Origin: Elusimicrobiota bacterium
Lineage (GTDB): Bacteria > Elusimicrobiota > UBA8919
Direction of reading: 5' to 3'
Length of the DNA stretch: 64,000 nucleotides
NCBI GenBank assembly: GCA_028718185.1
Contig: JAQUMH010000001.1
Location: 901,186 to 965,185 of the forward strand
Below are positions 11,687-64,000 of this stretch, piece after piece. Position numbers and translations under genes: made by a program. Position 1 is the first letter of the stretch, and the number at the start of each line of letters is the position of its first letter. The notes beneath the pieces were generated by a model. The model saw only the letters and a list, made by a program, of their open reading frames with translations, was not told the DNA's origin and did no database searches.

Positions 11687-14155
11687 CTACTTAATTATTG
11701 CTAATTTCTTTTTAACTGTTACTTTTTCATTTGTATCAAGTTCTCTAAGGTCAAGTATATAAAAATATATCCCGCTTGCTATATTTTTAGTATTCCAGAT
11801 AAACTCATATTTTGGCGGGGTCCTGGTTATTTCGTCATCTTTTACCAACTTGACTAATTCACCTGCAAGATTATAAATCCTAATTTTTGTGGTATGATTG
11901 GGATTCGGGACTGAATATCTTATTGTTATCTTATTAATTTTGCTTGGATTTGGATATGCATAAACATCTTTCTCTTTAAGTCCTATAAGTCTTACTACTG
12001 ATACAATTATCTGGTTTACTCCGACAAGATAGTCGTCTGCTACAGCATGGACCGTTATTGTATGTTCGCCTTTTGTATATTCGGTGGTGTCCCAAAAGTA
12101 TTCAGGGGTTTGTGATATCTTAACAAGTTTGGTGTCTATAAAATAGCGATATGATATAACAGAGCTGTTTGTCTCGGGATTCTTAGTGGCGCTTGCTGCA
12201 ATTTTTGCTGTTCCTCTCACAACTTCTCCATATGTTGGTGCAGTTATGGAAACAGTCGGTGATGGTTTGAAGAAGTTGTCGTACATCACCTTATCATACT
12301 TCGCTCTATCTTCTGTAGGTGAATCGTAGAGTTTAAATATTTCCAAACCAAGCCCGGCCATCTGAGGCGATGCTGCTCGCAGGTATTTTATCCATAAATC
12401 AATGTCGGGCGGTAGACCGTTATAGTCATCTCTGCCGCTAAGAATACCTATATTCTTCCCTTCAAGCCCGTAGAGTTTTATCCAGTCAATAAAATCCTTT
12501 ATATATGAGTTATATGGTCTGAACCCACGATAAATGTACATCTCTGCCGTATAAAGGTCCACCGCATCAGCTCCGCCTGAAATTACATCATCCATACTAC
12601 CGCCATAATAAGCAGCCATAACAAAAAAATTCGGGTATTGTTGTCTTACTCTTCTGAGGGCATTAATAGATTTTTGAGCCCGTGTATCACTGTCCCATGG
12701 AGCCCATTCATCAATATCTAATCCATAATATCCTTCCCTTGCAATCTTCAGATAATTTGCGTACATTTTTTCTTCAGTCTCAAGATACCAAATGCTAGTG
12801 ATTGTATATGTAGCAACCCTGACAGCGTAAGTAAACGGTATCGGTAATTTTCTTTTCCTTACCATAGTATCGTGCCATGACTTGTCAATATATATGTAAG
12901 CAGAAACAATTGAGGTTTCATGAAGTTGCTCGCCACCACCGGCAAACCATGAAATGATATATGGAGGATTCATAGGCGCAAGATTGGTATTTGGGAATAC
13001 TGCACCTTCATGAAAAAGCAGATTATTATTTGGTGGTGTCGCAGGAGTTGGGGTTTTAATACCCGGTGAATTTGATATTCCTGACCAGTTCGGAACATTA
13101 TCTGCTGTCTTTATTGCAAAATAATATTGGCTGTTAGGAGAAACCCCAAGTGCTACACATGATTGGTTTGCCCCGGCCCATCCGTCCGAGTTTTCAAACT
13201 TGTTCATTTCAATCGGAGTGGCTAAGTTCCAGTCTGACTCCGTTACTATCGGCAAAGAACGATATCTCATTTCATATTTTGAAACTCTGCCCGTATTGCC
13301 GTTACTACCTGGGGCAGTCCATGTAAGCGTGATTGAGGCAGGTGTTGTATTGCTTATAGCAAGATCATTTATCGCAGCCGGAGGTACTGAATCTGTTAAA
13401 GCAGGAGTCGTTCCGCTAGGTATATTTGATAATGCTGACCAATTAGGCACATCATCTGCAGTTTTTACTGCAAAGTAATATATCGTAGAAGGTGAAAGCC
13501 CGGCAACAACAAATTCTTCCTGACTGGATGGCTCTTTAGGTGTCGGTGTACCTGTGACTTGTGTCGCCGAATCCCAATTAATATCTGTTATCGGTGAAGT
13601 ATAATATCTTATGTCATATGGTATATATCTTGACGGCATACCTGCGGGACCCACATCAAGCGGAGCAGACCATTTAAGTTTAATTGATTTTGCTGTAGCG
13701 TTACTTGTTGCCAAATCGGTTATTGCCGCCGGTGGTGTTGTGTCTGTAAGAGCAAGCGTAGTGTTGCTCGGCGAATTTGACAGTCCAGACCAGTTAGACG
13801 CCTCATCTCCTGATTTTATTGCAAAGTAGTATTGTGTTGAAGGTGAAAGTCCGGTTACAATAAACGTTTCTACTGAACCGGCAGGTTTTGGATTTGGTTC
13901 ACTTGTTACCTGTGTTGCTGTACCCCAGGCAGATTCAGTAGTTATTGCGGAAACTGAATATCTTATATCATATTTAGTTGCCGAACCGGAGTAACCGTCA
14001 TTAATAGGAGCGCGCCATACTAGTGTAATTGACTTGGATGTCGGGTATCCGGTGATAAAATATGCTATTTTGGCAGGCGGGACTGTAGCAGCCATGATTT
14101 GAGTAGTATTAAAAATACTTGCGAGTAAGATAAACAACACATACATAACCGCCAT
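11687..14155 (-). CDS. Secreted protein: three FN3 domains, TIM-barrel-like domain, FlgD-like C-terminal domain
   Basis: After a signal peptide come three fibronectin type III modules of about 115 aa with repeated YYFAIK-x-x-D and NWSxLSN motifs, then a probable TIM-barrel region (GYYGLDIDEWAPWD, then FVMAAYYGGSMDD) that resembles glycoside hydrolase barrels without matching one I can name. An Ig-like module and a C-terminal YPNPSKINKITIRYSV...ASGIYFYIL...KKKLAIIK domain end the protein. That domain has the FlgD-Ig/sorting-domain shape shared with two other genes here. The open frame reaches 14179 with a TTG start; ATG at 14155 starts a better signal peptide, though no strong RBS is visible. 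Translation is probably coupled to the overlapping upstream oxidoreductase gene. Confidence 0.75.
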   Translation of the reverse strand: MAVMYVLFILLASIFNTTQIMAATVPPAKIAYFITGYPTSKSITLVWRAPINDGYSGSATKYDIRYSVSAITTESAWGTATQVTSEPNPKPAGSVETFIVTGLSPSTQYYFAIKSGDEASNWSGLSNSPSNTTLALTDTTPPAAITDLATSNATAKSIKLKWSAPLDVGPAGMPSRYIPYDIRYYTSPITDINWDSATQVTGTPTPKEPSSQEEFVVAGLSPSTIYYFAVKTADDVPNWSALSNIPSGTTPALTDSVPPAAINDLAISNTTPASITLTWTAPGSNGNTGRVSKYEMRYRSLPIVTESDWNLATPIEMNKFENSDGWAGANQSCVALGVSPNSQYYFAIKTADNVPNWSGISNSPGIKTPTPATPPNNNLLFHEGAVFPNTNLAPMNPPYIISWFAGGGEQLHETSIVSAYIYIDKSWHDTMVRKRKLPIPFTYAVRVATYTITSIWYLETEEKMYANYLKIAREGYYGLDIDEWAPWDSDTRAQKSINALRRVRQQYPNFFVMAAYYGGSMDDVISGGADAVDLYTAEMYIYRGFRPYNSYIKDFIDWIKLYGLEGKNIGILSGRDDYNGLPPDIDLWIKYLRAASPQMAGLGLEIFKLYDSPTEDRAKYDKVMYDNFFKPSPTVSITAPTYGEVVRGTAKIAASATKNPETNSSVISYRYFIDTKLVKISQTPEYFWDTTEYTKGEHTITVHAVADDYLVGVNQIIVSVVRLIGLKEKDVYAYPNPSKINKITIRYSVPNPNHTTKIRIYNLAGELVKLVKDDEITRTPPKYEFIWNTKNIASGIYFYILDLRELDTNEKVTVKKKLAIIK

Positions 14156-14171
14156 AAATATACCACATATT

Positions 14172-15227
14172 TTAGCCAAATTTTATTGCAACAGATTTAT
14201 TTGTCTCTGCAGATTTATAAAGTCCGTCAAACATTTTCAACATTGTTATACCCTGCTCTAAAGAAACTATGGGTTTTTTATTGTTTCGGATACAATCAAT
14301 AAAATGTTTAGCTTGTTCATCAAACTTGCTGTCTTCTCTTATTTCCGGCACAATAACTGACGGGCTACCTTCAATATATTTGATTAACTTCAATGGCGAG
14401 AATTCAGCACCGCCTTCAGTACCACACAAAACTGAAATGTTTTGAGTATTTTCACTGATATTTAATGCCCAGCTTATTTCTAAAGATAATGTAGCTCCGT
14501 TTTTAAATTTTATCAGTCCAACAGCTAAATCTTCTACATCAAAAGTTGTACCCTTTCTTTTGGATTGCCCAAAACCCGAATCTCTTAATCCTTTTGAACC
14601 AAACTCATCATATGTTGCACCAAAAACTTCTACCGGTTCAGGACAACCCATTTCCCACCAGGCAAGATCTATCGCATGAACACCAATATCAATAAGAGAA
14701 CCCCCACCTGAACATTTCTTAGTTGTAAACCAACTGCCTATGCCGGGTATTCCATGCCTTCTTAGCAGTTTTACCTTGGCATAATATATTTTGCCAAGCT
14801 CATTTTTATCTATTAATTTCTTTAAATATTGAGCTTCACTTCCAAATCTGCACACTTGTGCAATCATGAATATTTTTTTGCTTTTTGCCAAAGGACCTGC
14901 AATTTTTTCCGCCTCTTCTGCATTTATACTTAGCGGTTTTTCGCATATTACATGTTTGCCTGACTCAAGTACCTTTATTATCTGCGGCACATGTAAAAAG
15001 TTCGGCGTGCATACACTTACCGCATCAAGTTCATCAAGTGCAAGCATCTCTTCTAATTTTGTAAATTTTTTGGGTATGTTATATTCATTAGCGATTTTGT
15101 CCAATAATTCTTCATTAAGATCACATAATGCCAATACCTTTACTCCTTCTATTTTTTGATAACCTTTTATGTGCTGCCATGCCGGCCAGCCTGCCCCGAT
15201 TAATCCCACATTAATTTGCTTTGACAT
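14172..15227 (-). CDS. Gfo/Idh/MocA family oxidoreductase
   Basis: 351 aa. The N-terminal Rossmann fold has VGLIGAGWPAWQHIKGY, and the family motif ICEKPLS appears near residue 95-100 (nicotinamide-site lysine). The C-terminal alpha/beta domain begins around FGSEAQYLKKLID, with a GGGSLIDIGVHAIDLAWWEMG catalytic-helix segment. Such enzymes oxidise or reduce sugars or cyclitols with NAD(P). A GGAGAG precedes the ATG. It lies 38 bp downstream of a PilZ gene and overlaps the secreted FN3 gene. Confidence 0.9.
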   Translation of the reverse strand: MSKQINVGLIGAGWPAWQHIKGYQKIEGVKVLALCDLNEELLDKIANEYNIPKKFTKLEEMLALDELDAVSVCTPNFLHVPQIIKVLESGKHVICEKPLSINAEEAEKIAGPLAKSKKIFMIAQVCRFGSEAQYLKKLIDKNELGKIYYAKVKLLRRHGIPGIGSWFTTKKCSGGGSLIDIGVHAIDLAWWEMGCPEPVEVFGATYDEFGSKGLRDSGFGQSKRKGTTFDVEDLAVGLIKFKNGATLSLEISWALNISENTQNISVLCGTEGGAEFSPLKLIKYIEGSPSVIVPEIREDSKFDEQAKHFIDCIRNNKKPIVSLEQGITMLKMFDGLYKSAETNKSVAIKFG

Positions 15228-35582: not shown

Positions 35583-36518
35583 TTAAAATTTTACACTAAA
35601 AGATATTCTTTGAGTGTTGCCAAGGTCACCGTAGGGGATAAAGGCATAGTCAGTGGAAGTATTCGTTATTCGTAGTCCAAGTCCACCTCCAAAACCAGCA
35701 AAATTAGAGGCATTCATGTGTTCATGTGTTGATTTGTTCATTAGTAAGTAACCAATCCGTAATGCTAAAAGATTTATAGGTGCGTATTCTGTGCCGAAGG
35801 ATACTTCTGTTTTGTTATCATATATTTTTCTCTTTACGTCTAATGCAAACGTCATTGCTCTTTTTAGAGTATACCCAATTCCTACCGTTGCAGTTAGCGG
35901 TAGATTATAACCCTCGGAAATAAAGGTCATTTTAGGTCCTATGTTCTGAATCGATAAACCGTATTGTAGCGGCAAAACGAAGCTTTGCTTCATCAACAAT
36001 CCAATATCCATTGCAATGCCTGTAGCCTTTTCACCTGCTATGCCCTGCTGAATTATTTTTAAGTTAGTGCCTAAACTCACCTGCTTACCTGCTAACCCGC
36101 TCATCTGCTTGCTGTAACTAACAGTTACTGCCGTATCATATGCACTGAATGAACCTGTTTTCTGTCTATTCTCATCTCTGCCTTCTATCCTGCCTTGTGT
36201 AAGTGCTACCACGCTTATTCCCATCGTTCCCATACTTGTTGGTCTTACATAAGCCAAAAAATCATGATTGGTATCTGCAATCCACATCGTATGCTGTGCT
36301 ATTATCTCACTTTTACTCAATTGTGATAACCCCGCTGGGTTGTAACTGATTGCACTTGCATCGTTTGCTACTCCTACATATGCTCCACCCATTGAGACGG
36401 CACGAGCAGAAGTGCCGATGTTTAGGAAAGAAGCACCGGTGTTTTGAGAAGCAGTGAGTAGGGAGTAGGAAGTAGGAAGTAAGAAAAAGATAAAAATAAT
36501 AATTAAGATTTTTTTCAT
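35583..36518 (-). CDS. PorV/PorQ-like outer-membrane barrel protein
   Basis: 311 aa with signal peptide, then ASFLNIGTSARAVSMGGAYVGVANDASAISYNPAGLSQL, the hallmark N-terminus of the PorV/PorQ (UPF0164-like) family, followed by alternating strands ending in an aromatic residue (ISFSVKF). In type IX secretion PorV shuttles cargo bearing C-terminal domains. Here the gene lies directly downstream of a giant protein with a FlgD-like C-terminal domain. AAGGTGGT precedes the ATG. The signal peptide core (LLPTSYSLL) is encoded by a 7-bp tandem repeat. Confidence 0.85.
   Translation of the reverse strand: MKKILIIIFIFFLLPTSYSLLTASQNTGASFLNIGTSARAVSMGGAYVGVANDASAISYNPAGLSQLSKSEIIAQHTMWIADTNHDFLAYVRPTSMGTMGISVVALTQGRIEGRDENRQKTGSFSAYDTAVTVSYSKQMSGLAGKQVSLGTNLKIIQQGIAGEKATGIAMDIGLLMKQSFVLPLQYGLSIQNIGPKMTFISEGYNLPLTATVGIGYTLKRAMTFALDVKRKIYDNKTEVSFGTEYAPINLLALRIGYLLMNKSTHEHMNASNFAGFGGGLGLRITNTSTDYAFIPYGDLGNTQRISFSVKF
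36454..36481. repeat. 7-bp tandem repeat in the PorV-like signal peptide
   Basis: Four 7-bp units on the plus strand: GTGAGTA, GGGAGTA, GGAAGTA, GGAAGTA. They encode LLPTSYSLL of the signal peptide on the minus strand. Confidence 0.8.
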
Positions 36519-36538
36519 AATTGACCACCTTTAAGAAA

Positions 36539-36599
36539 GCAGAGCTTTGCTCTGCGGCTACACGACTAACTAGAGCAGGGTAAGACCCTGCTCTACAAC
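36539..36599. repeat. Two palindromic hairpin elements between surface genes
   Basis: First: GCAGAGC (36539-36545), TTT, GCTCTGC (36549-36555), GGCTACA. Second: TAGAGCAGGG (36571-36580), loop TAAGA, CCCTGCTCTA (36586-36595), CAAC. They occupy the gap between the giant protein and the PorV-like gene; the stems could attenuate or stabilise the transcript. Confidence 0.7.
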
Positions 36600-36629
36600 T
36601 AATTCACTAATTCTCTGATCTCTAATTAA

Positions 36630-39600
36630 CTATCTTACAACTGCTGCTTTCCCTGTTGCCTTTATGTCTGGATATCCGGCTTTCTTTGCTCTTATTACAT
36701 AAATATACACGCCACTGGCAACATTGGATATGTCCCAATTATACTCGTAACAGTATTTAGAATTTATCGTTAAGGGTTGAGTGCCATTAAGTTCTACTGA
36801 ATGAACATGCTCTGCGGCTATATTATAAATTTTAATCTCAATCTTATCCGCTATCCCGCACTCTATGTGTATTGTCGGTGTTTTACCATTCTTCGCAGGG
36901 TTGGGATAACTGTATATTTCTCCAAGAACAAATGCAGATGATGGTGCTAATTTAACTGCTGCAAATGGCTGTACGGAATTCGCTGTTATTGATATTGTGC
37001 CTTTACCGGTTGCATTGAATTGTCTGCAAAATATGTTACCGGAAAATGTGTAATTACCTGCTACCAGTGTTTTTGATTTAGGTGCATATATGATGCCATT
37101 GTATTCTGCTTTGCCACCTATCAACACTTGCGGGACTTTTGTTGTTTTGTCTCTTCTGCAATTTATATTGCCTTTTTTGTCTATTCCAAGCTCATCATCA
37201 AATGTTATGTCTTTGTCTTCAAATATTTCCGATAGCTCTTCATTGTTAAATGTGTTGTCTATTGTGAAGTTGTTGCACTCTATATCATCAAGTATGTCTT
37301 CATACCAGTGTCTCTCCTGTATGTAGGTGCTTACATATATTACAAAGTTTTTGACTTTGTCACCCGCCAACGATCCAGTGGCGGGCACACCATTTGCGTT
37401 TACTTTTACGTTCCCTACCAACTTTATATCGCCTATGCATACTATTTTTACTTTTCCTTGCAGTTTTATTTCGCTTTTTCCGGTTAGCTGTATTCCGGTA
37501 AAGTAATATGTGCCGGTAGACATTGTTAAACTATCGTTACCGGTTATTACTAATCTGCCTTTTTTGTCTATCGGTTTTTTACCTTTTTGTGTTAGTCCTA
37601 TGTCAACGTTATTGTTTTGGGTAGCTGCTTTGTTTATTATTTGTGTCAGATTTATCGGATACGGGTCTATTTTGGACGCATTCTCTGTTATAGTGCCGTT
37701 TATTGTGCTGCTCCTGGATATTTTTACTTTATCACCATATATGTTGCCGGTTATTACCGGCTTACCTTTTATGGTTATCTCTCCATTACTGCGTATATCC
37801 CCCTTTATGTTAACTTTGCCTGTTATGTTTATTTCTTCGCTGCCTATTAGTGTATATTTCTGCAGTATGGTTACTGTTACGTTCATCGTTTTTGTTTGTT
37901 CGCTGTTACCAACATTATCATTTGTATAATATTCTATGGTATGCTCACCTGATGGTAATGTAAACGCATTTACATATTCTGCATAATTTGTGCTGGTATC
38001 TATTCTGTAGTGTGTTTTGTTTACTCCACTGGCTATGCCACTAGACAGAGGGTCTGTTGCTGTAAAAGAAAGTATTGTATCAGGTGCTATTATTGTTTCT
38101 TGTCCTGATTGTTGTTTGTTGTTGAATAATATTTCAGTTACTGGTGCTGTATTGTCTACATAATATGTTTTCTGGTTTATTTGTTCTGTGTTGCCAAGAT
38201 TGTCGGTTGAGTAGTATCCTATTGCATGGATGCCTTCAGACAAAATAAATGGAGTGGCATAGGTTATTATCTGCCCACTGTCTATTGTATAACTTACCTG
38301 TTTTATTCCGCTGGCTACTTCATTGATTATTGGATCTTGTGTAGTAAACACTATGTTTGTCTGTGAAGTTATATATGTTTTATTGTCCGATGATATATAT
38401 TTTAGTCCATTCTCGGTTATTTGGCTTTGGGGTTTTGTGTTGTCTAATTTTAATGTTAGATCTCTTGTTGGTTCTGTGTTTTCTACGTTGTCTTGTGAGT
38501 AATAATTCATTGAATATATTCCATCCATACCGGTTATATTAAATGTGGTAACGTATTGGGTATATGCTGGGATATTATTTGTGCTGGTGTATATGGTGTA
38601 TTTTGTTTCTTTTATGCCTGATGGTATTGTGCCGGAATCAATCGCTATAAGTGTAAATGCTGATTCCGAGGTTATGTAGTCATTATATTTTGGTTGTGCT
38701 ATACTTACAAATGTCTCTGAAATGCTATTGTCTATTATTACTTTTACTGACCTTTCCGTTTCCTGATTTAATAAGTTATCATAACTGCGATAATATATTG
38801 TGTGTTCGCCTTCAGGTAAAGCAGAAAGATAAAAGGTAGAGATATAAATGGAGTAGAAACTATCATCTATTTTATACTCTGTATATTTTACTTCACAGGG
38901 AATTGTGCTTCTGTCAACTGATACTAAACTTACCGCTGTCTCTGAACTTACAAATACTTTGCCATTATCTATAAACTTAGGACTATGAACTATTAACTGA
39001 CTCTCAGGAGGCGTATTATCCACTATCACTTCAAGAGTTTTTGGCTGTTCGGTGTTACCTATTACATCTACACTATAATAAGTTATCGTATGCGAACTTT
39101 CAGTTGGAATCGTAAATGTCCCTGTATATACTATGAACTCCGAACTATCAACTCTGAATTTTGTCTCTTTCACTCCTAACCCTCTACCATCTCCTACCTC
39201 TATTATATCATCAATTGCTGATAATGAAATATCCGTTAGTGATGTTATATAAGTTTTACTATCAACTATGAACTTTGGACTATGAACTGCCACTTCAGTC
39301 CTCGGTGGCTGTATGTCATGTATCACTTCAAACTTTGCTGTAGTTGTAGATGAATGATTCCCAACCCAATCAGTTGCCTCAACTGTTAATGTCCAAAATC
39401 CATCATCAATACTCAGTGGCTCTATCATTCGTCCACTATTTACCTGTATTGTCGTTCCTTCTTCCAAGTCAGTTAAATATGCATAATATGTCGGCACCGG
39501 GTCAAGGTTATCGGTAACTGTATAGTTTATTGTTATTGTAGAAACTGTCGCAATAAATCTTTCTCCACCAACTGGTGAACTAATTGTTATTTCAGGTGGG

Positions 39601-41468
39601 TTTTCATCAATGATATTAAGGGTACCAGTAGAATATCCACTGTTATATCTATCATTACCTTCAAATCTCACTCTTATATCCAACTGATTTTTTGTAGGTT
39701 TTTTTGGTAAAGTAAATTCAAACATTGCCTCATAAACCGAAAGAGGACTATTCCCTAATAATATCCAATTTTCTCCATCATAATATTCAAGATGTAATAT
39801 TGGAATATCTCCATTAGGAATTAACGGTTCTTCATCAGAATCAAACATTGTTGCATATGCGGTTCCAGTAGATGGATAACTAATAATTGCAGAAAGATTA
39901 GATAAAACAATATTTTTCTTCTCAATTGTTAATTTTACTGAATCACTTGAAGGCAAATGATAGAAACCGTCACCATAATACTCAATATTCATTGTATATT
40001 CACCAGACGGCTGGCTTGCAGTAATGTCAATACTTGCTACACCTTCACTGCTTGTTATAACGGTATAACTGCTGTTGCCAATAGTAAATGTTATGGGATT
40101 ATAAGATATCTTTTTTCCATTTTCAGTTGTAAGTAGTGCTTGTAGTTTTAAAGAATCTGAATACTTAACATTGTTTTGCCCACTGTAGACAATTTGTGTT
40201 TGATGTGGAATTACAGAAACGACAGAATTTGTTCTTGTTTCTTCACATACTGATGGAAAATATACAGTTGCATAATTTGTAATTACCGTCTCTGGTTGTG
40301 CATCACTTTTCACTCTTACGCTTAAATCAAACTTGCCACCTTGTTTTGAACCAACTTCCCCATAGTTATCTATAAATACTGTTAACATTCTCGTTTTTGA
40401 ATCATACCGATATTCAAAATTAGAGGGTGTCTCAGTATTGTTCGTATAATCCTTTCTCTTAAAGTTTGAAACAACTAAACTTGTATCATCCAAACCTTCA
40501 GGTAAAACATTTGTTACATATACTCCATATGCAATCCCTTCTCCTATATTCTCAAACTCAACCGTATAATTCAATGTCTGCCCTGCATATACATATCCTT
40601 TAGGTCCATACATCACATTAGGGTCTCTGGGTCTAAACATTCCATTTGCTGTTTCACCATTAGGTGATGGTGGCGGTTCTGGTGGTTCATCGTCTTCTAT
40701 CGTAAATTTAACAGTTTTCAAATTAAAATTCCCCGCCCAATCACTCGCATAAAAATCAACTTCGTATTCTCCAGGATCTGTATATGATTTTCCCTTTCTA
40801 AATCTTTCTCCAGTAGCTTTATCACGAGCAAAAGCTCTGGGTTCAGGTTCCCCTGATGTATATATATCATCAATAGCAGTAAAACTTACTGTAACTGGGT
40901 TTTTATATGTCTTATCATTTTCTACACTTATATCTTTTATAGTTGGTTCCACATTATCATAAATAAGACGGTGCCAAGTATAACCAATAAGTTCACTAGT
41001 AATACTATATGTTGATATTGCTACTCCATGTTTACTACCTGATGCTTCAATCACACTAGCTACTTTATAAGTTTCATACCATCCTATAAAAATTCTTACA
41101 TGTTTTCCACCATATTTTGGATCATTATATGTTATCAACAAATCTCCTGGATAAATTCCTTGCCACCATGCAACAGGAATTGTAAGTTTTTCTTTTAAAT
41201 GCCAGGCACTGTAATGTCTCCTTAATCCTGACGCCATGTCAACCAAACCAGAACAGTCAAGAGATTTCCCATCCCATGGTTTGAATATATAACCAAAAGT
41301 ATCTTCATTTGTTTCGTCTGGTGTACCATAATCATATGTAATTCCACGATTAAGGTAATTTTCTGCACTATTTACCAATGCTTGCCCTGTTATATTTACA
41401 GAATATATTTTGGATATAGGTAATATTAGAAAAAGCAATGATAATAATCTTAATTTATTTTTTCCCAT
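36630..41468 (-). CDS. Giant secreted multidomain protein: NlpC/P60, DUF11, OmpL47-type repeats, FlgD-like C-terminus
   Basis: 1612 aa with signal peptide. Residues ~25-165 are an NlpC/P60-type cysteine peptidase: DCSGLVDMASG (C72) and GKHVRIFIGW (H123); the third polar residue would be E141, where His is commoner. A DUF11-like domain (YTVEFENIGEGIAYGVYVTN) follows, then Ig-like modules. About five OmpL47-like repeats come next (YITSxTxIxLxAxD, IDxxxxxY, HTIxYYSxDNxGNxE). Then a parallel-beta region ending near 1400 and a C-terminal YPNPAKNG...ASGVYIYVIRA domain. Likely cell-surface, possibly cell-wall active. One palindromic repeat is inserted in frame at 37363. Third gene of the riboswitch operon. 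Confidence 0.8.
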   Translation of the reverse strand: MGKNKLRLLSLLFLILPISKIYSVNITGQALVNSAENYLNRGITYDYGTPDETNEDTFGYIFKPWDGKSLDCSGLVDMASGLRRHYSAWHLKEKLTIPVAWWQGIYPGDLLITYNDPKYGGKHVRIFIGWYETYKVASVIEASGSKHGVAISTYSITSELIGYTWHRLIYDNVEPTIKDISVENDKTYKNPVTVSFTAIDDIYTSGEPEPRAFARDKATGERFRKGKSYTDPGEYEVDFYASDWAGNFNLKTVKFTIEDDEPPEPPPSPNGETANGMFRPRDPNVMYGPKGYVYAGQTLNYTVEFENIGEGIAYGVYVTNVLPEGLDDTSLVVSNFKRKDYTNNTETPSNFEYRYDSKTRMLTVFIDNYGEVGSKQGGKFDLSVRVKSDAQPETVITNYATVYFPSVCEETRTNSVVSVIPHQTQIVYSGQNNVKYSDSLKLQALLTTENGKKISYNPITFTIGNSSYTVITSSEGVASIDITASQPSGEYTMNIEYYGDGFYHLPSSDSVKLTIEKKNIVLSNLSAIISYPSTGTAYATMFDSDEEPLIPNGDIPILHLEYYDGENWILLGNSPLSVYEAMFEFTLPKKPTKNQLDIRVRFEGNDRYNSGYSTGTLNIIDENPPEITISSPVGGERFIATVSTITINYTVTDNLDPVPTYYAYLTDLEEGTTIQVNSGRMIEPLSIDDGFWTLTVEATDWVGNHSSTTTAKFEVIHDIQPPRTEVAVHSPKFIVDSKTYITSLTDISLSAIDDIIEVGDGRGLGVKETKFRVDSSEFIVYTGTFTIPTESSHTITYYSVDVIGNTEQPKTLEVIVDNTPPESQLIVHSPKFIDNGKVFVSSETAVSLVSVDRSTIPCEVKYTEYKIDDSFYSIYISTFYLSALPEGEHTIYYRSYDNLLNQETERSVKVIIDNSISETFVSIAQPKYNDYITSESAFTLIAIDSGTIPSGIKETKYTIYTSTNNIPAYTQYVTTFNITGMDGIYSMNYYSQDNVENTEPTRDLTLKLDNTKPQSQITENGLKYISSDNKTYITSQTNIVFTTQDPIINEVASGIKQVSYTIDSGQIITYATPFILSEGIHAIGYYSTDNLGNTEQINQKTYYVDNTAPVTEILFNNKQQSGQETIIAPDTILSFTATDPLSSGIASGVNKTHYRIDTSTNYAEYVNAFTLPSGEHTIEYYTNDNVGNSEQTKTMNVTVTILQKYTLIGSEEINITGKVNIKGDIRSNGEITIKGKPVITGNIYGDKVKISRSSTINGTITENASKIDPYPINLTQIINKAATQNNNVDIGLTQKGKKPIDKKGRLVITGNDSLTMSTGTYYFTGIQLTGKSEIKLQGKVKIVCIGDIKLVGNVKVNANGVPATGSLAGDKVKNFVIYVSTYIQERHWYEDILDDIECNNFTIDNTFNNEELSEIFEDKDITFDDELGIDKKGNINCRRDKTTKVPQVLIGGKAEYNGIIYAPKSKTLVAGNYTFSGNIFCRQFNATGKGTISITANSVQPFAAVKLAPSSAFVLGEIYSYPNPAKNGKTPTIHIECGIADKIEIKIYNIAAEHVHSVELNGTQPLTINSKYCYEYNWDISNVASGVYIYVIRAKKAGYPDIKATGKAAVVR
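37363..37385. repeat. CCCGCCA palindromic element inside the giant protein gene
   Basis: CCCGCCA (37363-37369), 9-nt loop, TGGCGGG (37379-37385). It differs by about two bases from the copy at 56464-56486 in the pst operon. In this gene it encodes the stretch PATGSLAG in frame. Confidence 0.8.
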
Positions 41469-42637
41469 TTTATTACTTTGAATCCTTCATTTAACTTATT
41501 TTCTAACCATACTATCTGATATACACCACCATTCCAACTTATACAAGGAGCAACAAATATTGAATTAACTGAATTAAATAATTGATATTTAGAAACTAAC
41601 TTACCTTTAAAATTATATTTTATAACAAGATTTTGATATATTTTATTCTTTTCTGAATCATTATTTGCAGTAGATACAAAAACATAAACATTACCACTAC
41701 TATCTTCACACAAAGGACTATACCATCTCTGATTGGGAATTTTGATATATATAATCTTTTCAATTTTTTTAACATTTTTTTTATTAGACCAAAATAAAAA
41801 AGTATAACGAGTGCTTTCCATAAAACTGGGATATTTGTTTCTTTCGCTCTTTTCCAAGGTTTTAAGATATTCTCTCACTGAATCAATTCCAAAATATTCT
41901 GCTTGTTTAAAAACTTTATCATGTTCTGTTCTAGTATTATAATATGAAGGCATAATGCTAAAACTTGGAGCATCAATAGAATCTTCACCAATTTCTAAAT
42001 ATATAAATTCTTTTGGTGAAATTGCTCTCATATCACTGTAGTTTTGAATTGTTAGTTTTCCTAATTTTTTTAATAAATCAAATATTTTATTCTTTCCTAA
42101 AACTTTTCCTTTGATTTCCTTATAATATTTTTCATCAACACCTTTAAGTTGTTCATAAACATTTTTATTAACATATCCATCAATTATATATGAAACTATA
42201 CTGCCATTAAAATTATATTTTTTAATTACATAAGGTTTTAACTCTTCTCCTGGATGAATAAAAATACTATTATCAGATATTTTTATCTCATCTTTACCAG
42301 CAACATACTCTTGAGGTTCTTTTGGAATCTTTTCTAAATCAATTGTTGTCTGTAATTTTCCTTCTTTGTCATACTTCTTTACTCGCCAGTTTACTGCATC
42401 AAAAATGTATATATTTCCTTCTTTATCCACATCCATTGCCACTGGTCCCCTTACTTCTCCTTTTGTATATATCCCAAACTCATCATCCCCTTTACCCCAT
42501 TTGCCTTGTATTATTACTTTCGGTTCATATTGCTCTAAATAAGTTGTGGTTGATTTGTTAATTTCATTTTGAGTAGAAACCTCAGCGAATAAGTTGGAAG
42601 TCACCAAAATAAACAATACCATACTAATAATCTTCAT
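41450..42637 (-). CDS. Secreted protein with NHL-type beta-propeller repeat, unknown function
   Basis: Start chosen at 42637: AAGGAG about 10 nt upstream, and the protein then opens with a signal peptide (MKIISMVLFILVTSNLFAEVS). The 395 aa contain VRGPVAMDVDKEGNIYIFDAVNWRVKKYDKEGKL, a clear NHL/6-bladed-propeller repeat, and later weaker blades (YNFKGKLVSKYQLF). Probably a periplasmic or surface binding module. It overlaps the giant gene by 19 bp, so translation is coupled. Confidence 0.75.
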   Translation of the reverse strand: MKIISMVLFILVTSNLFAEVSTQNEINKSTTTYLEQYEPKVIIQGKWGKGDDEFGIYTKGEVRGPVAMDVDKEGNIYIFDAVNWRVKKYDKEGKLQTTIDLEKIPKEPQEYVAGKDEIKISDNSIFIHPGEELKPYVIKKYNFNGSIVSYIIDGYVNKNVYEQLKGVDEKYYKEIKGKVLGKNKIFDLLKKLGKLTIQNYSDMRAISPKEFIYLEIGEDSIDAPSFSIMPSYYNTRTEHDKVFKQAEYFGIDSVREYLKTLEKSERNKYPSFMESTRYTFLFWSNKKNVKKIEKIIYIKIPNQRWYSPLCEDSSGNVYVFVSTANNDSEKNKIYQNLVIKYNFKGKLVSKYQLFNSVNSIFVAPCISWNGGVYQIVWLENKLNEGFKVIKWEKIN

Positions 42638-42704
42638 AACCTTTTTTCTCCTTCGTTTTGTAATTAAATCTGTAAAATTGTTGTTTTTACCCCTATTCTT
42701 TTCT

Positions 42705-45700
42705 CTACTTTTCAGTGAAATCATATGTTGGAAGATATGAATCCATCTGCTCTTTTGTTAAAATATATGCTTTGCATTTAACTACCGTATTTAATGTTAA
42801 TCCCCACATTATTGTTGACTGGCAATTATATTGTTTTACTGTTTTAGCTGGAATATTAATATCCCATCTTATCATATTCATTGGATAGTATTTTTTATCA
42901 ATCCAGTTGGGAACATCATACAGAGTATATAAACCAACTGCAGAACCAAAATTACTATATGCTGAAGGATATACTATTAAAGACATATTTTCAGCATCTT
43001 TTAGTCCATCATTTCTTACTTCCATGGTATATGTTATCGTCTGTCCTGGGCTTATTGCACTGCCAGGTCCCCAAATCTTTACCTTTAAGTCAGGTTGAGG
43101 CGGTTTACCATAATCAAGTCGGGTTATTGACATTGATAATTTTTTAGGTGTTACACTTTCATCAAGATATGCAGAAAGTAATCCATATATCGGACCGGTA
43201 ATGGCTCCTTTTAAATTTGTTTCATTAATAGTACTTTTCTTAACATAACTATAACTCATACCCGAACCTAAACTTGAGTTGTATGACATTATTGAAAATC
43301 CTTCATTGTTACATGGATTACTTATTTCATCTATCCGTAGTAGTGTTATTATTGTTGTTAAATTACCAGTATAATATCCCGCAGCCGTTCCTTCAACTGC
43401 TGTCTGTAAATAATGTATTTTAGTGTTTGGATATTCTGTTTCTGTTTGATATATTATGCTACCTGATAAATTTATTCTATCTGCAATAGATTGTGACCCT
43501 ATCTCTGTTATTGTTAATGTTGCATTGTATATATCATAATTACCACTTCCAACAACAGATTCCTGTATCACTGCTTCTATTATACCACTACCTGCACCTT
43601 CAACATAACCATTCATATATATATTTCTTTCTTTTGTATTTAGATATGATATCCCTTTCCAAAAACAAGGATATGAAGCATTCCCTACATTTATTGTAAA
43701 ACTACTTTTGAATAAACCTTTATCTGCAAATGAACCTGTTTTTATATCTATCTTTTCAAAATTTTGAAAATTCAAACTACCAACAATACTTTCACCGTGA
43801 AAAACTGTGTTATTTAATACTATTCTTTGTGATTTTAATGTTTCATAAATTAAGTTATCTTTTGAATATGTTTCTGATAGATTTGATATACTAACAGGAG
43901 ATTCTATATTGAGACACTTTAATACAATTGTTCCATTACCTAAAGGATTAGTTATAATGCCGCAATTACTGATAATACTACCTGTAAAACTATTAGTATT
44001 GTAATATATTGCTATCCTACCTCCGCCTCCACCATTGCCCTTATCACTTCTATCACTTCCATTTCCACCATTAGATGTTATCGTTCCATTACCTAAAATT
44101 GTATTTGCTTTGATGTATACACTACCACCACTACCACCACCTGCCGGCCAATTGCCACCCCAACTCCCATCACCACCATTCGTTCCATTCGCTGAAATTA
44201 TTCCATTAAATGTCAAAGTGTTCGCTGTTATCTTTATTGCTCCTCCACCTGCGCCTCCTGTTCCAAGTGATGGTGCAGATGCTCCTCCGCCACTTCCAAG
44301 GTCTGTTGGCGTATACATACTTCCATAAACAGAACTCATTCCACCAAAACCACCGTAACTTCCACCTGCTGATGTATTGCCGGTGGGTGCTCCGGGTCCC
44401 TTATACTGCGGATACCCTTTGCCATCTACTGTAATTTTACCACCTGCTTGTATATTTAATGTATCTTCTATTTCAAGTTCAAAATCCGGGTCTTGATTAC
44501 TATGGGTTAATATCCCGCCACTAAATATTGTCAAATTACTCAATGATAGTTTAGTGTTTAAATAAAATATACCGCCACTGTCTATCTGTAAAGCATCAAA
44601 ACCTTCTTTTTTCAATATTCCAGCATTATGATAAAATGCTCCGCCATTTTCCAACTTGAAATTGGTTACTGCAATATTGCCTGTATTTGTAACTACTCCT
44701 AAATCTTTTATGTTTAAATTAACAGATGTCACAACATCATTATCAGATATTTCTAATGTCGCTTTATTTTTTACTGTTATTTTATCAAAGGTGTGTACTC
44801 CATCTATTATTGGTGTGGTTCCTTGACTATTATTATTATCTATCGTCAAATCACCATAATTTTGTGTTGTAGATTTCAGATATATTGTTCCAGCACCACC
44901 GTAAGCATTTATTGCACCTGCTCCTCCATATGCTGTTATTATGCCTGTAAAATTGTTTGTCGTGTAATATATCGCTATCCTGCCTCCGCCACCGCCACAT
45001 CCTCTTTCGCTACGGTTACTATCACTACCACCATTGGCTGTTATCGTTCCAGTACCTGAAATTGTATTTGCTGTAATGTATACACTACCACCGCTACCTC
45101 CACCTGCCGGCCAATTACCTCCCCAACTCCCGTCACCACCATTTGTTCCATTTGCTATTATTGCACCATTAACTGTCAACGTGTTTGCTGTTATCTTTAC
45201 TGCTCCTCCACCTGTGCCTCCTGTTCCAACTGATGGTGCAGATGCTCCTCCGCCACTTCCAAGGTCTGTTGGCATATACATGCTTCCATAAACAAGACCC
45301 ATTCCACCAAACCCACCATAACTACCGCCTGCTGATGTATTACCGGTAGGTGCGCCAGGTCCCTGATATTGTGGATACCCCTTACCTGTTACATCTATCT
45401 TTCCACCTGTATCTATTGTAAGATTCTCATGTACTTCAAGTTCAAAATCACTGTCTTTCTGGGTATGGGTCAATATTCCGCCATTCACTACCGTTAAGTT
45501 ACCCAAAGACAATTTAGTGTTTAAATAAAATGTACCACTATTACCTATCTGCAAACTGCCTTCTCCAGATACAGGTCCATTGACTATTATATTGCCACTG
45601 TTATGGTATAAAGAACTTCCACTCTCTAATGTAAGATTTTCTAACGCCATTTTGCCTTCGTTGGTAACTATACCATTATTTGTCACTGTCAAATTTGTTG

Positions 45701-46655
45701 TTATTAATTCATTACCACTCTCTACTTTAAGGTTTGCTCTATTGCTCACTAAAATACTATCAAAAGTAAGAATATTAGTACTAACTACAAATGGTGTAAT
45801 AAAACAGGATTGGTTATTATTTTTTATTATTAAGTCACCATAACTCTGTGTAGTAGATTTCAGATATATTGTCCCAGCACCACCATAAGAATTTAGTGCA
45901 CCTGGACCACCATATGATGTTATTATGCCTGTTAAATTGTTTGTCATGTAATATATCGCTATCCTGCCTCCGCCACCGCCACATCCTCTTTCGCTACGGT
46001 TACTATCACTACCACCGTTGGCTGTTATTGTACCAGTACCTATTACAATATTGGCGTTGATGTATACACTGCCACCGCTACCACCACCTGCCGGCCAATT
46101 ACCACCATAGCTCCCATCACCGCCATTTGTTCCATTTGCTGTTATTACACCATTAACTGTCAACGTGTTCGCTGTTATCTTTACTGCTCCTCCGCCTGTT
46201 CCACCTGTTCCAAGTGATGGTGCAGATGCTCCTCCACCACTTCCAATATCTATTGGTAAGTATATGCTTCCATAAATAGTACCCATTCCACCAAACCCGC
46301 CATAACTACCCCCTGCTGATGTGTTGCCGGTGGGTGCTCCAGGTCCTTGATACTGTGGATAACCTTTGCCAGTTGCGTCTATCTTTCCATTAATTATAAC
46401 GGTGGAAGCTGACAATTCTAACCTACCACTACTACCTGAACCATTATATTGGGTTATAAAGAGTGTTCCATAGATTTGCACTGAATTTGTATAGGTATGA
46501 GTACCGCTTAAGGTATATGTTTCGGTGGCGAGAATTATTAAATCACTTGAATTGTCAGTTAATGCAAATACTTGTATAGGGGAAAAAACTAAAATGTAAA
46601 AAATTATTATACCTGCAAATAAATGTTTAATAAAAATGTTTTTATTCTTTCTCAT
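42705..46655 (-). CDS. Secreted glycine-rich adhesin-like repeat protein
   Basis: 1316 aa from the ATG at 46655, which opens with a signal peptide (FAGIIIFYILVFSPIQVFA); the open frame reaches 46697 and neither start has a clear RBS. Three near-identical ~160-aa glycine-rich blocks (KGYPQYQGPGAPTGNTSAGGS, then AGGGSGGSVYI and CGGGGGRIAIYY) alternate with beta-helix-like NLTVxxGGILTH segments. The C-terminus has a DUF11-like ISPGQTITYTMEVRNDGLKDAENM domain. No FlgD-like tail. First gene after the c-di-GMP riboswitch, so probably a regulated surface adhesin or matrix protein. Confidence 0.8.
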   Translation of the reverse strand: MRKNKNIFIKHLFAGIIIFYILVFSPIQVFALTDNSSDLIILATETYTLSGTHTYTNSVQIYGTLFITQYNGSGSSGRLELSASTVIINGKIDATGKGYPQYQGPGAPTGNTSAGGSYGGFGGMGTIYGSIYLPIDIGSGGGASAPSLGTGGTGGGAVKITANTLTVNGVITANGTNGGDGSYGGNWPAGGGSGGSVYINANIVIGTGTITANGGSDSNRSERGCGGGGGRIAIYYMTNNLTGIITSYGGPGALNSYGGAGTIYLKSTTQSYGDLIIKNNNQSCFITPFVVSTNILTFDSILVSNRANLKVESGNELITTNLTVTNNGIVTNEGKMALENLTLESGSSLYHNSGNIIVNGPVSGEGSLQIGNSGTFYLNTKLSLGNLTVVNGGILTHTQKDSDFELEVHENLTIDTGGKIDVTGKGYPQYQGPGAPTGNTSAGGSYGGFGGMGLVYGSMYMPTDLGSGGGASAPSVGTGGTGGGAVKITANTLTVNGAIIANGTNGGDGSWGGNWPAGGGSGGSVYITANTISGTGTITANGGSDSNRSERGCGGGGGRIAIYYTTNNFTGIITAYGGAGAINAYGGAGTIYLKSTTQNYGDLTIDNNNSQGTTPIIDGVHTFDKITVKNKATLEISDNDVVTSVNLNIKDLGVVTNTGNIAVTNFKLENGGAFYHNAGILKKEGFDALQIDSGGIFYLNTKLSLSNLTIFSGGILTHSNQDPDFELEIEDTLNIQAGGKITVDGKGYPQYKGPGAPTGNTSAGGSYGGFGGMSSVYGSMYTPTDLGSGGGASAPSLGTGGAGGGAIKITANTLTFNGIISANGTNGGDGSWGGNWPAGGGSGGSVYIKANTILGNGTITSNGGNGSDRSDKGNGGGGGRIAIYYNTNSFTGSIISNCGIITNPLGNGTIVLKCLNIESPVSISNLSETYSKDNLIYETLKSQRIVLNNTVFHGESIVGSLNFQNFEKIDIKTGSFADKGLFKSSFTINVGNASYPCFWKGISYLNTKERNIYMNGYVEGAGSGIIEAVIQESVVGSGNYDIYNATLTITEIGSQSIADRINLSGSIIYQTETEYPNTKIHYLQTAVEGTAAGYYTGNLTTIITLLRIDEISNPCNNEGFSIMSYNSSLGSGMSYSYVKKSTINETNLKGAITGPIYGLLSAYLDESVTPKKLSMSITRLDYGKPPQPDLKVKIWGPGSAISPGQTITYTMEVRNDGLKDAENMSLIVYPSAYSNFGSAVGLYTLYDVPNWIDKKYYPMNMIRWDINIPAKTVKQYNCQSTIMWGLTLNTVVKCKAYILTKEQMDSYLPTYDFTEK
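43920..46380. repeat. Three long glycine-rich coding repeats
   Basis: Near-identical DNA blocks of roughly 450-500 bp at about 43920-44430, 44870-45395 and 45840-46380, spaced about 0.95 kb, all within the glycine-rich gene. They could recombine and change copy number. Confidence 0.75.
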
Positions 46656-46732
46656 ATTGAGCTGTATTCGGATAAAATTAATTTTTATTATATACAACTT
46701 TTACAAAATAAAAACCAAATTACCTGTTTTAA

Positions 46733-61861: not shown

Positions 61862-62797
61862 TTACTTTGAGAGACCGAATCTGTAACCGACACTTATTCT
61901 GTTTGTCGTATTAAGATAAAGTCCGGGTATATATGCGTAACCGAAATCAATATTTTTCCAGTTGATACCTAAACCGAAATGCAGTTTCGCTTCTTCAACA
62001 TTGAATCTGTAGCCGATATTTAAAGAGACAACCTCATAACCAAACTCAAATCCCAACTCAGGAATTAGTTCTTTATCTTCAATATTATAGGTTGCGCCGA
62101 CTCCGGGAATAATATAATATTTCCCTGATTTATAAAAATAACCGCTTCCTAAATAACCGGATGAGGGAAGCGGATTTTTTTTCTCAATAAACTTTGTTGA
62201 TGAACCGAGATTTTGAACCGCTGCCGAAACTGATAAATTTTCTGTCGGAAGATAAAATACACCGAGGTCTCCGACATAAGCAATTGCTGACTCCCGTTCT
62301 ATGATCTTGCTTGATGCAAATTTCAGCGATGCACCTCCGAACAGACTATCGCTGAATTTATGCCCGTAAGATAACAACCCGAACAAATCCCTCTGTGCAG
62401 AAACATTTGCTGTTTTAAGTTCACCGCCTTCAAGCCAGTTTAATTCCATAATTCCTGCATCATAATATGCAACTCCGCCGGCAATCATACCATTTTTCAA
62501 TGGTTCTCCATAAACTAAACCGCCTAATTTGTCATCGGATAATCCAAGTTCTGAAATAAAAAATATCTCCCGTTGTTGATTAGTCCCCAGAACGGCGGGG
62601 TTATAAAACACACCGGATAAATCACCGCGAACCCCGGTAACTGTTGTCATCGCTTTGAACTTTGCCGACTGCACTTTTTTGAAAATCGACCAGCCGGATT
62701 TTCCGAAATCTGCATAAACCGTATTTACCTGATTTATAAAAAAAACAAGTCCGATAAATTGGGAAACTACCAACAGTTTAAAAATTTTTCTTTTCAT
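61862..62797 (-). CDS. PorV/PorQ-like outer-membrane barrel protein
   Basis: 311 aa. A hydrophobic N-terminus is followed by AKFKAMTTVTGVRGDLSGVFYNPAVLGTNQ, the PorV/UPF0164-type N-terminal motif, and many alternating strands ending SVGYRFGLSK. Second member of this family in the window; like the first it lies directly downstream of a gene for a FlgD-like C-terminal-domain protein. GGAGGGG precedes the ATG. Confidence 0.82.
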   Translation of the reverse strand: MKRKIFKLLVVSQFIGLVFFINQVNTVYADFGKSGWSIFKKVQSAKFKAMTTVTGVRGDLSGVFYNPAVLGTNQQREIFFISELGLSDDKLGGLVYGEPLKNGMIAGGVAYYDAGIMELNWLEGGELKTANVSAQRDLFGLLSYGHKFSDSLFGGASLKFASSKIIERESAIAYVGDLGVFYLPTENLSVSAAVQNLGSSTKFIEKKNPLPSSGYLGSGYFYKSGKYYIIPGVGATYNIEDKELIPELGFEFGYEVVSLNIGYRFNVEEAKLHFGLGINWKNIDFGYAYIPGLYLNTTNRISVGYRFGLSK

Positions 62798-62863: not shown

Positions 62864-64000
62864 CTACCTTACTATCGCCATTTTTTTATGGATACTGACA
62901 CCGGGACCTTTGATATGTACAACATATATTCCTGATGCTATATTTTTGGGTATCCATTCAAACCTGCCTTCTGAGAGATTTTCTTTCGTCTCATCGTGGA
63001 CAAGTTCACCGGTTAATGTAAATATCCTGCATTCAAACTTTCCGACTTCCGTTCCTTTGAAATCAACTTTAACCGACTCACCCTTATCGGGATTTACTGC
63101 GCCCCTGCTTTCAGTTCCACCAACAACTTTCACTTCACCGGATTGTGTCACTGTGGAATTTGCTGCTTTTGCGGTATATGTCCCTACAAAATCCCAGTTG
63201 CTGACACTTATTGAAAGCGATGTTGTACTTATTGAAACAGGGCTAAAAGTGTAATCTGTTTTAGACGCTGTCACTGTATAACTTCCTTTAGCTAAGCTTA
63301 AAAACTCATAATAACCGGAACTATTTGTAGTTGTAACCCCTTGACTTGCTCCTGTCAAGTTAATACTTACACCGTTTATCGCCGTTCCGGCTGAATCCTT
63401 CGCATATCCCTTTATGAAATAGGTAACAACATCCGGAACCCACTTCGCATACTTTAAATCAGAGTTTGTAAAATCACGATATGAAATATTCGGATTATCA
63501 TTTGAGTCGAGAGCTATAGAAGTATACCAACCTACATCACCTACTGCGTCTACTGACTCAGTGGTCCATGCAGTACCTGTCCACTTTGCATATTTTAAAC
63601 CAAATAATCCGGCACCACCGCTACGATAATAAGAAATGTGCGGATAATTATTACTATCAACCGCTATGGAAGTATAGAAACCCACCTGCCCTACTGTATC
63701 AACTAAGTCAGTTGTCCATGAAGCGCCATCCCACTTTGAATACCTTAAACCAGGACTTATGTTATCGCTATGAGAAATATGTGGATAATCATTACTGTCA
63801 AGCGATATAGAACTATAGTAACCTCCAACAACAACTGTTGAAGTTGACCATGCAGTACCTGTCCATTTAGCATATTTAAGCTGCCCGTTTGTGCTATGAC
63901 AATACGAAATATGCGGATAATTCTTTGAATCAACAGCTATAGAAGTATATGTGCCCACATCACCATCTGATTCAATTGTTGAAATTACCCATGAAGTACC
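62864..64000 (-). CDS. Secreted repeat protein with FlgD-like C-terminal domain, 5' end outside window
   Basis: The frame runs 14 codons past the apparent GTG start at 63958 to the window edge, so the N-terminus is missing. Visible: at least four ~55-aa repeats (SIAVDSNNYPHISY, LKYAKWTGTAWTT, VDxVGxVG), which look like beta-propeller blades; a carboxypeptidase-regulatory-like domain (IKGYAKDSAGTAINGVSINL); and a C-terminal domain ending IPKNIASGIYVVHIKG and KKMAIVR, akin to those at 11687 and 36630. Confidence 0.85.
   Translation of the reverse strand, partial: GTSWVISTIESDGDVGTYTSIAVDSKNYPHISYCHSTNGQLKYAKWTGTAWSTSTVVVGGYYSSISLDSNDYPHISHSDNISPGLRYSKWDGASWTTDLVDTVGQVGFYTSIAVDSNNYPHISYYRSGGAGLFGLKYAKWTGTAWTTESVDAVGDVGWYTSIALDSNDNPNISYRDFTNSDLKYAKWVPDVVTYFIKGYAKDSAGTAINGVSINLTGASQGVTTTNSSGYYEFLSLAKGSYTVTASKTDYTFSPVSISTTSLSISVSNWDFVGTYTAKAANSTVTQSGEVKVVGGTESRGAVNPDKGESVKVDFKGTEVGKFECRIFTLTGELVHDETKENLSEGRFEWIPKNIASGIYVVHIKGPGVSIHKKMAIVR

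What the first reader, a model, noticed from the sequence alone, without database searches (positions are those of the whole stretch)
35583..41468. Cargo-then-PorV gene pairs, found twice
The giant protein with a FlgD-like C-terminal domain (36630-41468) is followed by a PorV-like gene (35583-36518). The same order occurs at 62864-64000 followed by 61862-62797. A third protein (11687-14155) has the same C-terminal domain. PorV carries C-terminal-domain cargo in the type IX system; a pairing of dedicated PorV-like proteins with individual cargos would suggest a related export or anchoring system. The PorL/M/N/Sov genes are not in this window.
Basis: partly seen in the sequence, partly recalled or inferred. 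Interest (0 to 1): 0.65.

Follow-up and report, generated by a model that had tools for sequence, protein, structure and literature searches.

The report
One anchor barrel per secreted protein
This bacterium seems to export dozens of large surface proteins through a type IX-like outer-membrane channel and to give many of them their own private carrier barrel from the next gene, in a group of bacteria where this secretion system is said to be absent.

Summary
The genome encodes 52 PorV/PorQ-like barrels and 76 C-terminal-domain (CTD) proteins in the 859 kb I fetched. For 41 of 52 barrels a CTD gene is the immediate same-strand neighbour (about 3 expected genome-wide; label shuffles inside the hit-enriched segments give mean 14, maximum 26). 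The CTDs are Type A: they match TIGR04183 and solved PorZ/PorU CTDs, and carry the near-terminal lysine. A SprA/Sov homologue sits elsewhere in the genome and in 25 of 26 genomes of its phylum (inferred: Elusimicrobiota). The catalytic family of the sortase PorU (Peptidase_C25) was found in 1 of 26 genomes, not this one; GldL and GldM profiles found nothing, without a positive control. The barrels resemble PorQ, which tethers PorZ, more than PorV. Barrel and CTD divergence are correlated, even where passengers are unrelated, and several barrels carry TPR, LysM or OmpA extensions. Best reading: a SprA-based type IX-like system in which Type A cargos have dedicated PorQ-like carriers that also anchor them, as SprF does for Type B SprB. 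Secretion and anchoring are inferred, not shown. New variant of a known kind.

The parts
35583..36518 (-). PorV/PorQ-like outer-membrane barrel, dedicated carrier of the cargo at 36630-41468
   Evidence: NF033709 180.5 bits; PorQ model 119.6, PorV model 79.4; PDB 6h3i PorV 8.1e-5
36630..41468 (-). 1612-aa cargo with OmpL47-type and Ig-like repeats and a Type A CTD
36633..36932 (-). last 100 aa of that cargo: Type A CTD, near-terminal lysine at -6, ends in R
   Evidence: TIGR04183 24.4 bits, PF18962 30.2 bits; alignments
61862..62797 (-). second PorV/PorQ-like barrel (divergent)
   Evidence: NF033709 76.1 bits, below cut-off; PorQ model 64.7; 29% identical to the first
62864..64000 (-). 3' part of the second cargo (555 aa in the genome), Type A CTD
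   Evidence: TIGR04183 26.4 bits, PF18962 29.1 bits; full gene C1:964049-965716
62867..63166 (-). CTD of the second cargo
11687..14179 (-). orphan cargo (fn3, Big_7) with a Type A CTD and no PorV neighbour
   Evidence: TIGR04183 28.8 bits, PF18962 31.3 bits; neighbours
11690..11989 (-). CTD of the orphan cargo; modelled as an Ig-like sandwich
   Evidence: phmmer hit to substrate CTD 8glj_D 7.3e-4; model pLDDT 80.6; PorU and PorZ CTDs among VIA-align rows

Best explanation
The gene pairs are the substrate-and-carrier units of a SprA-based, type IX-like secretion system. The cargo is exported to the periplasm by its signal peptide (inferred), enters the SprA channel, and its Type A CTD is caught there by a PorV/PorQ-like barrel docked on SprA. 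Unlike the Bacteroidota, which use one general Type A carrier (PorV) and then cut and re-attach cargo with the sortase PorU, this lineage gives many cargos, or small groups of cargos, their own carrier, encoded next to the cargo. With no C25 sortase found, the CTD probably stays uncut and the carrier remains bound as the permanent surface anchor, in the way PorQ tethers PorZ and SprF holds SprB. Carriers with TPR, LysM or OmpA extensions would fix the complex to periplasmic partners or peptidoglycan. Shown: gene pairs, family assignments, SprA, correlation of CTD and barrel divergence, missing C25 family. Inferred: secretion through SprA, specificity, non-cleavage, anchoring.
For: 41 of 52 barrels adjacent to a CTD gene (shuffles). 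Overlapping or near-overlapping genes in class A pairs, gaps -25 to 226 bp, 4 of 23 overlapping. All 75 complete CTDs end in K/R and 68 of 75 have K at -6; in relatives 40 of 43 and 42 of 43; control proteins end in K/R in 91 of 278 and have K/R at -6 in 68 of 278. SprA in 25 of 26 genomes, its profile hitting only SprA in the PDB, 3.6e-30. C25 in 1 of 26. PorQ model beats PorV model in 20 of 24 barrels. CTD profile hits PorZ best in the PDB, 1.9e-7. Barrel-CTD distance correlation 0.55 over 40 pairs, 0.40 over 19 non-redundant class A pairs, 0 of 2000 permutations each. Class B: partial correlation 0.55 given the cargo N-terminus, 2 of 2000; two barrel subtypes match two CTD subtypes in 16 of 16. 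The four CTDs nearest to the window CTD belong to cargos beside (three) or two genes from (one) barrels of the window clade, though passengers are unrelated apart from shared repeats in one. Extensions on long barrels: TPR 11, CsgG 3, LysM 2, OmpA 1 of 20.
Against: No experiment. 11 of 52 barrels have no adjacent CTD gene, and 20 of 76 CTD genes have no barrel within two genes; in relatives 18 of 46 barrels lack one. Adjacent genes are inherited together, so the correlations need not mean binding specificity. The SprA homologues never reach the curated cut-off (0 of 26), and Pfam SprA_N matches only 2 of 21. Energy-chain genes were not found, though these profiles had no positive control. Only 12 of 32 short barrels end in an aromatic residue. 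The barrel fold could not be modelled (pLDDT 28.7).
Confidence: 0.6

Rival explanations
1. Dedicated carriers without permanent anchoring: each barrel extracts its own cargo from SprA, but an unrelated protease, most likely the M6 metalloprotease that itself carries a CTD and sits beside SprA next to PorV genes, then cuts CTDs and releases or attaches the cargos, taking PorU's place.
For: An M6 match was found in 21 of 26 genomes, over the cut-off in 19, usually as one copy, and within 10 kb of SprA in 11. In 7 of 8 fetched relative SprA loci with an M6 gene a PorV gene adjoins it, and in this genome it lies between two. The HExxHxxGxxD-like motif is kept in this genome and in 8 of 9 M6 proteins from relatives. 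PorU is likewise a CTD protein (PMC10202324, passages).
Against: M6 was not found in G029, G040, G009, G010 and G020 and only weakly in G033, while G029 and G040 have 8 and 67 CTD matches. In this genome it looks like an ordinary paired cargo. One copy (L186) lacks the motif.
Confidence: 0.2
2. Pairing without specificity: barrels and cargos are neighbours because they spread and duplicated together, but any carrier can handle any CTD.
For: In solved structures the translocon accepts non-identical CTDs, and the contact surface is poorly conserved (PMC10994853, passages). 20 of 76 CTD genes lack a barrel within two genes. Counts of both families also track genome size (Spearman 0.82 and 0.85).
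Against: Partial correlation in class B, where the CTD lies far from the barrel gene, and unrelated passengers in the window clade. A single general carrier would not explain about 50 barrels.
Confidence: 0.15
3. The barrels are unrelated FadL/UPF0164-type transporters and the C-terminal domains generic FlgD-like Ig folds; the neighbourhood is coincidental.
For: PF03687 and PF03349 also match the barrel. FlgD_ig matches 10 of 14 CTDs, and FlgD structures match the CTD profile.
Against: Adjacency far above chance, C-terminal K/R and K-6 signature, SprA in nearly all genomes, and a joint near-absence of SprA, CTD and PorV in G020.
Confidence: 0.03

Closest known systems
Type IX secretion system of Bacteroidota (SprA/Sov, PorV, Type A CTD)
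   Same: SprA-like channel, PorV/PorQ-family barrels, Type A CTD cargos with the near-terminal lysine
   Different: About 50 barrels instead of one general carrier; C25 sortase family not found; GldL/GldM not detected; cargo-carrier gene pairs; a phylum outside those reported
SprB-SprF and PG1035-PorP (Type B CTD with dedicated PorP-like carrier)
   Same: Dedicated carrier encoded beside its cargo (sprB-sprF), which it is proposed to anchor
   Different: Here the CTDs are Type A and the barrels are PorV/PorQ family; TIGR04131 (Type B) matched 1 of 14 CTDs, weakly
PorZ-PorQ tether in Porphyromonas gingivalis
   Same: Barrels score closer to PorQ than to PorV; CTD profile's best solved match is PorZ, whose CTD is retained
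   Different: One structural pair there; dozens of diverse cargos here; none of the 24 scanned reaches the PorQ equivalog cut-off
Poribacteria proteins with TIGR04183 (PMC3909097, passages)
   Same: Type A CTD annotations outside the Bacteroidota
   Different: There no structural genes of the system were found; here a SprA homologue and the barrels are present

Membership tests
Type IX secretion system | SprA/Sov translocon | tested here: met
   TIGR04189 6.3e-35, 119.8 bits whole protein, below curated 200; 25 of 26 genomes; profile of 21 homologues hits only SprA in the PDB, 3.6e-30
Type IX secretion system | PorV/PorQ-family outer-membrane barrel | tested here: met
   NF033709: 53 matches in this genome, 44 above cut-off 90
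Type IX secretion system | Type A CTD at the C-terminus of cargos | tested here: met
   TIGR04183 55 matches in this genome; 14 of 14 scanned CTDs; end signature
Type IX secretion system | PorU-type C25 sortase | tested here: not met
   PF01364 in 1 of 26 genomes, none in this genome; listed PorU-model matches cover only its C-terminal end, apart from one in G004
Type IX secretion system | GldL/PorL and GldM/PorM motor | tested here: inconclusive
   0 of 26 for TIGR03517 and TIGR03513, no positive control rang
Type IX secretion system | GldK/PorK, GldN/PorN, SprE/PorW, PorX/PorY | not tested
Type IX secretion system | Cargo secretion shown to depend on these genes | not testable with these tools
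   needs genetics
SprF-like dedicated Type B carriers | PorP/SprF family barrel | tested here: not met
   window barrels: TIGR03519 absent or 19.1 bits, cut-off 90.55; some long paralogues match Pfam PorP_SprF (7 of 20)
SprF-like dedicated Type B carriers | Type B CTD (TIGR04131) | tested here: not met
   1 of 14 CTDs at E 0.0097; TIGR04183 14 of 14
PorQ | NF033711 equivalog score of 220 bits | tested here: not met
   best of the 24 scanned 145.2: PorQ-like, not PorQ

The most novel reading that the evidence does not exclude
A whole phylum outside the Bacteroidota runs a sortase-free, SprA-based type IX system in which Type A cargos are exported by, and stay uncleaved on, their own PorQ-like anchor barrels; passengers are swapped on conserved CTD-barrel units, and a CTD-bearing M6 metalloprotease encoded beside SprA in many genomes is the system's own processing enzyme.
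Probability: 0.3. Interest if true: 0.82.

Novelty: new variant of a known kind. Interest (0 to 1): 0.7.

Why it matters
Reviews confine type IX secretion to the Bacteroidota or the FCB group (PMC10202324, PMC11205867, PMC11285876, passages; the last calls its genes absent from other phyla). Here a SprA-PorV/PorQ-CTD core is nearly universal in the sampled genomes of another phylum. It joins what is taught as two separate routes: Type A substrates use one general carrier and may be cut and linked to lipopolysaccharide, while Type B substrates keep a dedicated carrier as anchor (PMC12635249, passages). About 40 natural Type A CTD-barrel pairs in one genome are a ready data set for learning how a carrier recognises its CTD, and a possible kit for surface display with private anchors. 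It also asks how the export is powered if GldL/GldM are really missing.

Tried and rejected
Structure of the barrel: modelled from the two window barrels only, pLDDT 28.7, discarded. Structure of the orphan CTD from three window CTDs: usable (pLDDT 80.6), but Foldseek listed no PorU or PorZ among its 50 rows; VIA-align lists PorU (Z 9.5) and PorZ (Z 9.1) among many unrelated Ig folds, so the fold is consistent but not diagnostic. SprA relatives in named genomes: 3 loci, two from a MAG labelled Clostridia at 28-29% identity, not followed. Single-sequence SprA search of the PDB found nothing; the profile did. Recent DNA duplication between loci: no repeat of 500 bp or more at 95%. GldL and GldM searches are uninformative without a positive control. 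Five weak PorV-like ORFs (own-profile E above 1e-15) were dropped before counting, and CTD-like ORFs were required to match at the C-terminus; in relatives two CTD-like hits 7 and 15 residues short of the C-terminus were not counted as CTD. I rejected the name PorV for the window barrels in favour of PorV/PorQ-like. Papers: 10 searches. The searches pairing Elusimicrobi with type IX, T9SS or sorting-domain terms and the PorV-like search listed nothing that I recognised as describing such pairs or such a system in this phylum; of the listed papers I read only passages, and most subscription papers are not held.
Full report
WHAT IS THERE. The window is G000:C1:901186-965185 of a 3.03-Mb, 27-contig genome estimated 96.7% complete. 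Both cargo-then-barrel pairs are real. The barrel at 35583-36518 scores 180.5 bits against the PorV/PorQ family; the one at 61862-62797 scores 76.1, below the cut-off. The cargos end in Type A CTDs by TIGR04183 and PF18962. The third CTD protein (11687-14179) has no barrel neighbour. Its nearest CTD is that of a giant cargo on contig C12, three genes upstream of a 929-aa PorV-like gene.

THE WHOLE GENOME. TIGR04183 finds 55 CTDs and NF033709 finds 53 matches. From these hits I fetched stretches, built own profiles and called ORFs: 52 barrels and 76 terminal CTDs among 494 genes in 859 kb. A CTD gene is the immediate same-strand neighbour of 41 of 52 barrels: upstream of 28, downstream of 21, some on both sides. 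About 2.7 would be expected if CTD genes were spread over some 2,880 genes. Within the segments, which were chosen around hits and are therefore enriched, shuffling CTD labels gave mean 13.95 and maximum 26 in 5000. Of 76 CTD genes, 43 have a same-strand barrel next door and 56 within two genes.

TWO ARCHITECTURES. Class A is cargo then barrel: 23 pairs, gaps -25 to 226 bp, four of them overlapping; both window pairs belong here. Class B is barrel then giant cargo: 17 in the pair list, one of them an ambiguous C12 barrel whose cargo also has a class A barrel. Several class B loci have a divergent gene upstream of the barrel; the one scanned is a cupin/AraC-type regulator. The one class B giant scanned at 3,499 aa carries CBM6, CBM35, Laminin_G_3 and FG-GAP domains. 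In relatives the order is almost always class A: 28 of 46 barrels in 40 fetched loci from 28 genomes have a CTD neighbour, 27 upstream and 2 downstream (loci chosen as high-scoring barrels).

THE CTD IS TYPE A. 14 of 14 CTDs scanned match TIGR04183 and 13 match the PorZ model; TIGR04131 (Type B) matches 1 weakly. FlgD_ig also matches 10 of 14, so a profile of this fold alone is not diagnostic. In the PDB the CTD profile hits PorZ (1.9e-7) before FlgD (5.2e-5), then PorU (4.8e-4) (the table names the PorZ chain as antigen PG93, names the same entry PorZ), and the orphan CTD hits 8glj_D, a Por secretion CTD chain of the entry that also holds SprA and PorV (7.3e-4). All 75 complete CTDs end in K or R and 68 have K at -6; in relatives 40 of 43 and 42 of 43; control proteins 91 of 278 and 68 of 278 (K or R at -6). 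PMC10994853 (passages) reports an almost invariant, functionally important lysine near the end of Type A CTDs that contacts PorV; that it is the residue at -6 is my inference.

THE CHANNEL AND THE MISSING PARTS. A 1,726-aa SprA homologue lies at C12:19125-24305. TIGR04189 matches in 25 of 26 genomes of the phylum, never above the curated cut-off. A profile of 21 homologues hits only SprA in the PDB (3.6e-30). The one genome without it, G020, also lacks CTD matches and has one weak barrel match. Peptidase_C25, PorU's catalytic family, was found in 1 of 26 genomes (G004), not in this one. PorU-model matches listed cover its C-terminal end only, apart from one in G004. GldM and GldL gave 0 of 26 but no control rang.

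THE PHYLUM. Kinship labels come from the tool; the name Elusimicrobiota is my inference. NF033709 matches 59 of 60 genomes searched (own included), over the cut-off in 39.

DO BARREL AND CTD BELONG TOGETHER? Barrel and CTD distances correlate over 40 pairs (0.55), class A (0.47), class B (0.81) and 19 non-redundant class A pairs (0.40), each with 0 of 2000 permutations reaching it. Joint inheritance of neighbours could give this. In class B the CTD lies at the far end of large genes whose N-terminal parts average 25% identity; the partial correlation of barrel and CTD given that N-terminus is 0.55 (2 of 2000), and two barrel subtypes (about 35% identical) match two CTD subtypes in 16 of 16 (the C12 pair was left out). 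In the window's own clade, the four CTDs nearest the window CTD belong to cargos next to (three) or two genes from (one) barrels 46-77% identical to the window barrel, while passengers show no BLAST similarity except shared repeats with one. Other conserved pairs keep their passenger. This favours, but does not prove, specificity.

WHY AN ANCHOR. Of 24 barrels scanned, 20 score higher with the PorQ model than with PorV, 2 the reverse, 2 match neither. [quoted passage not shown] That review also suggests that cognate PorV-like barrels may protect CTDs from cleavage; this lineage looks like that idea at scale. Of 20 long barrels, TPR matches 11, CsgG 3, LpoB 2, LysM 2, OmpA 1. If the barrel is oriented as PorV is, these extensions are periplasmic (inference). 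The Type B precedent is SprB-SprF and PG1035-PorP-PorE (PMC9143113, passages).

THE SPRA LOCUS. An M6 metalloprotease gene, CTD-bearing where checked in most fetched loci, lies within 10 kb of SprA in 11 of 26 genomes, with a PorV neighbour in 7 of 8 fetched relative loci that have M6. LptF/LptG-like genes adjoin SprA in 18 of 20 fetched relative loci; the copy in this genome is LptG by profile, 207.4 bits against a cut-off of 240. The M6 enzyme is the best candidate if any CTD processing exists, but it was not found in some genomes rich in CTDs, such as G040.

NOVELTY. Reviews confine the system to Bacteroidota or FCB phyla (PMC10202324, PMC11205867, PMC11285876, passages). My searches in the held library listed no report that I recognised of it in Elusimicrobiota or of PorV/PorQ pairs with single Type A cargos. 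Poribacteria were reported to have TIGR04183 proteins without the structural genes (PMC3909097, passages). The mechanism is an extension of a known kind, hence a new variant.

Noticed in passing
L069:3350-8659 (C12:11349-16658) and relative SprA loci: M6 metalloprotease with a CTD between two PorV-like genes beside SprA; the only M6 match in this genome; M6 within 10 kb of SprA in 11 of 26 genomes
   Followed up: partly
L069:8640-9707 and 18 of 20 relative SprA loci: LptF/LptG-like permease genes adjoin SprA, mostly divergently; a possible lipopolysaccharide link
   Followed up: partly
Class B loci, e.g. L078:10767-13194: Divergent cupin/AraC regulator, then PorV-like gene and large cargo, one with carbohydrate-binding domains: resembles a sugar-responsive locus
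   Followed up: partly
L049:2005-3276 and 19 other long barrels of the genome: PorV-like barrels fused to TPR, CsgG/LpoB-like, LysM or OmpA domains
   Followed up: partly
G020: Small genome with no SprA or CTD match and one weak PorV match; probably a reduced endosymbiont
   Followed up: no
window 41450-42724 and 42705-46697: 424-aa protein (weak ScyF-like match) and 1330-aa AgmC-like protein just upstream of the first cargo, same strand, overlapping ends, apparently one operon
   Followed up: no
window 19860-22169: 769-aa STT3-like oligosaccharyl transferase, 408 bits against a cut-off of 450, unusual in a bacterium; could glycosylate exported proteins
   Followed up: no
L216, L217, L218, L227, L235: In one family of the phylum (f3) a PorV-like gene is followed by a conserved-length gene of 187 aa (188 to 190 aa in L219 and L220) instead of a cargo
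   Followed up: no
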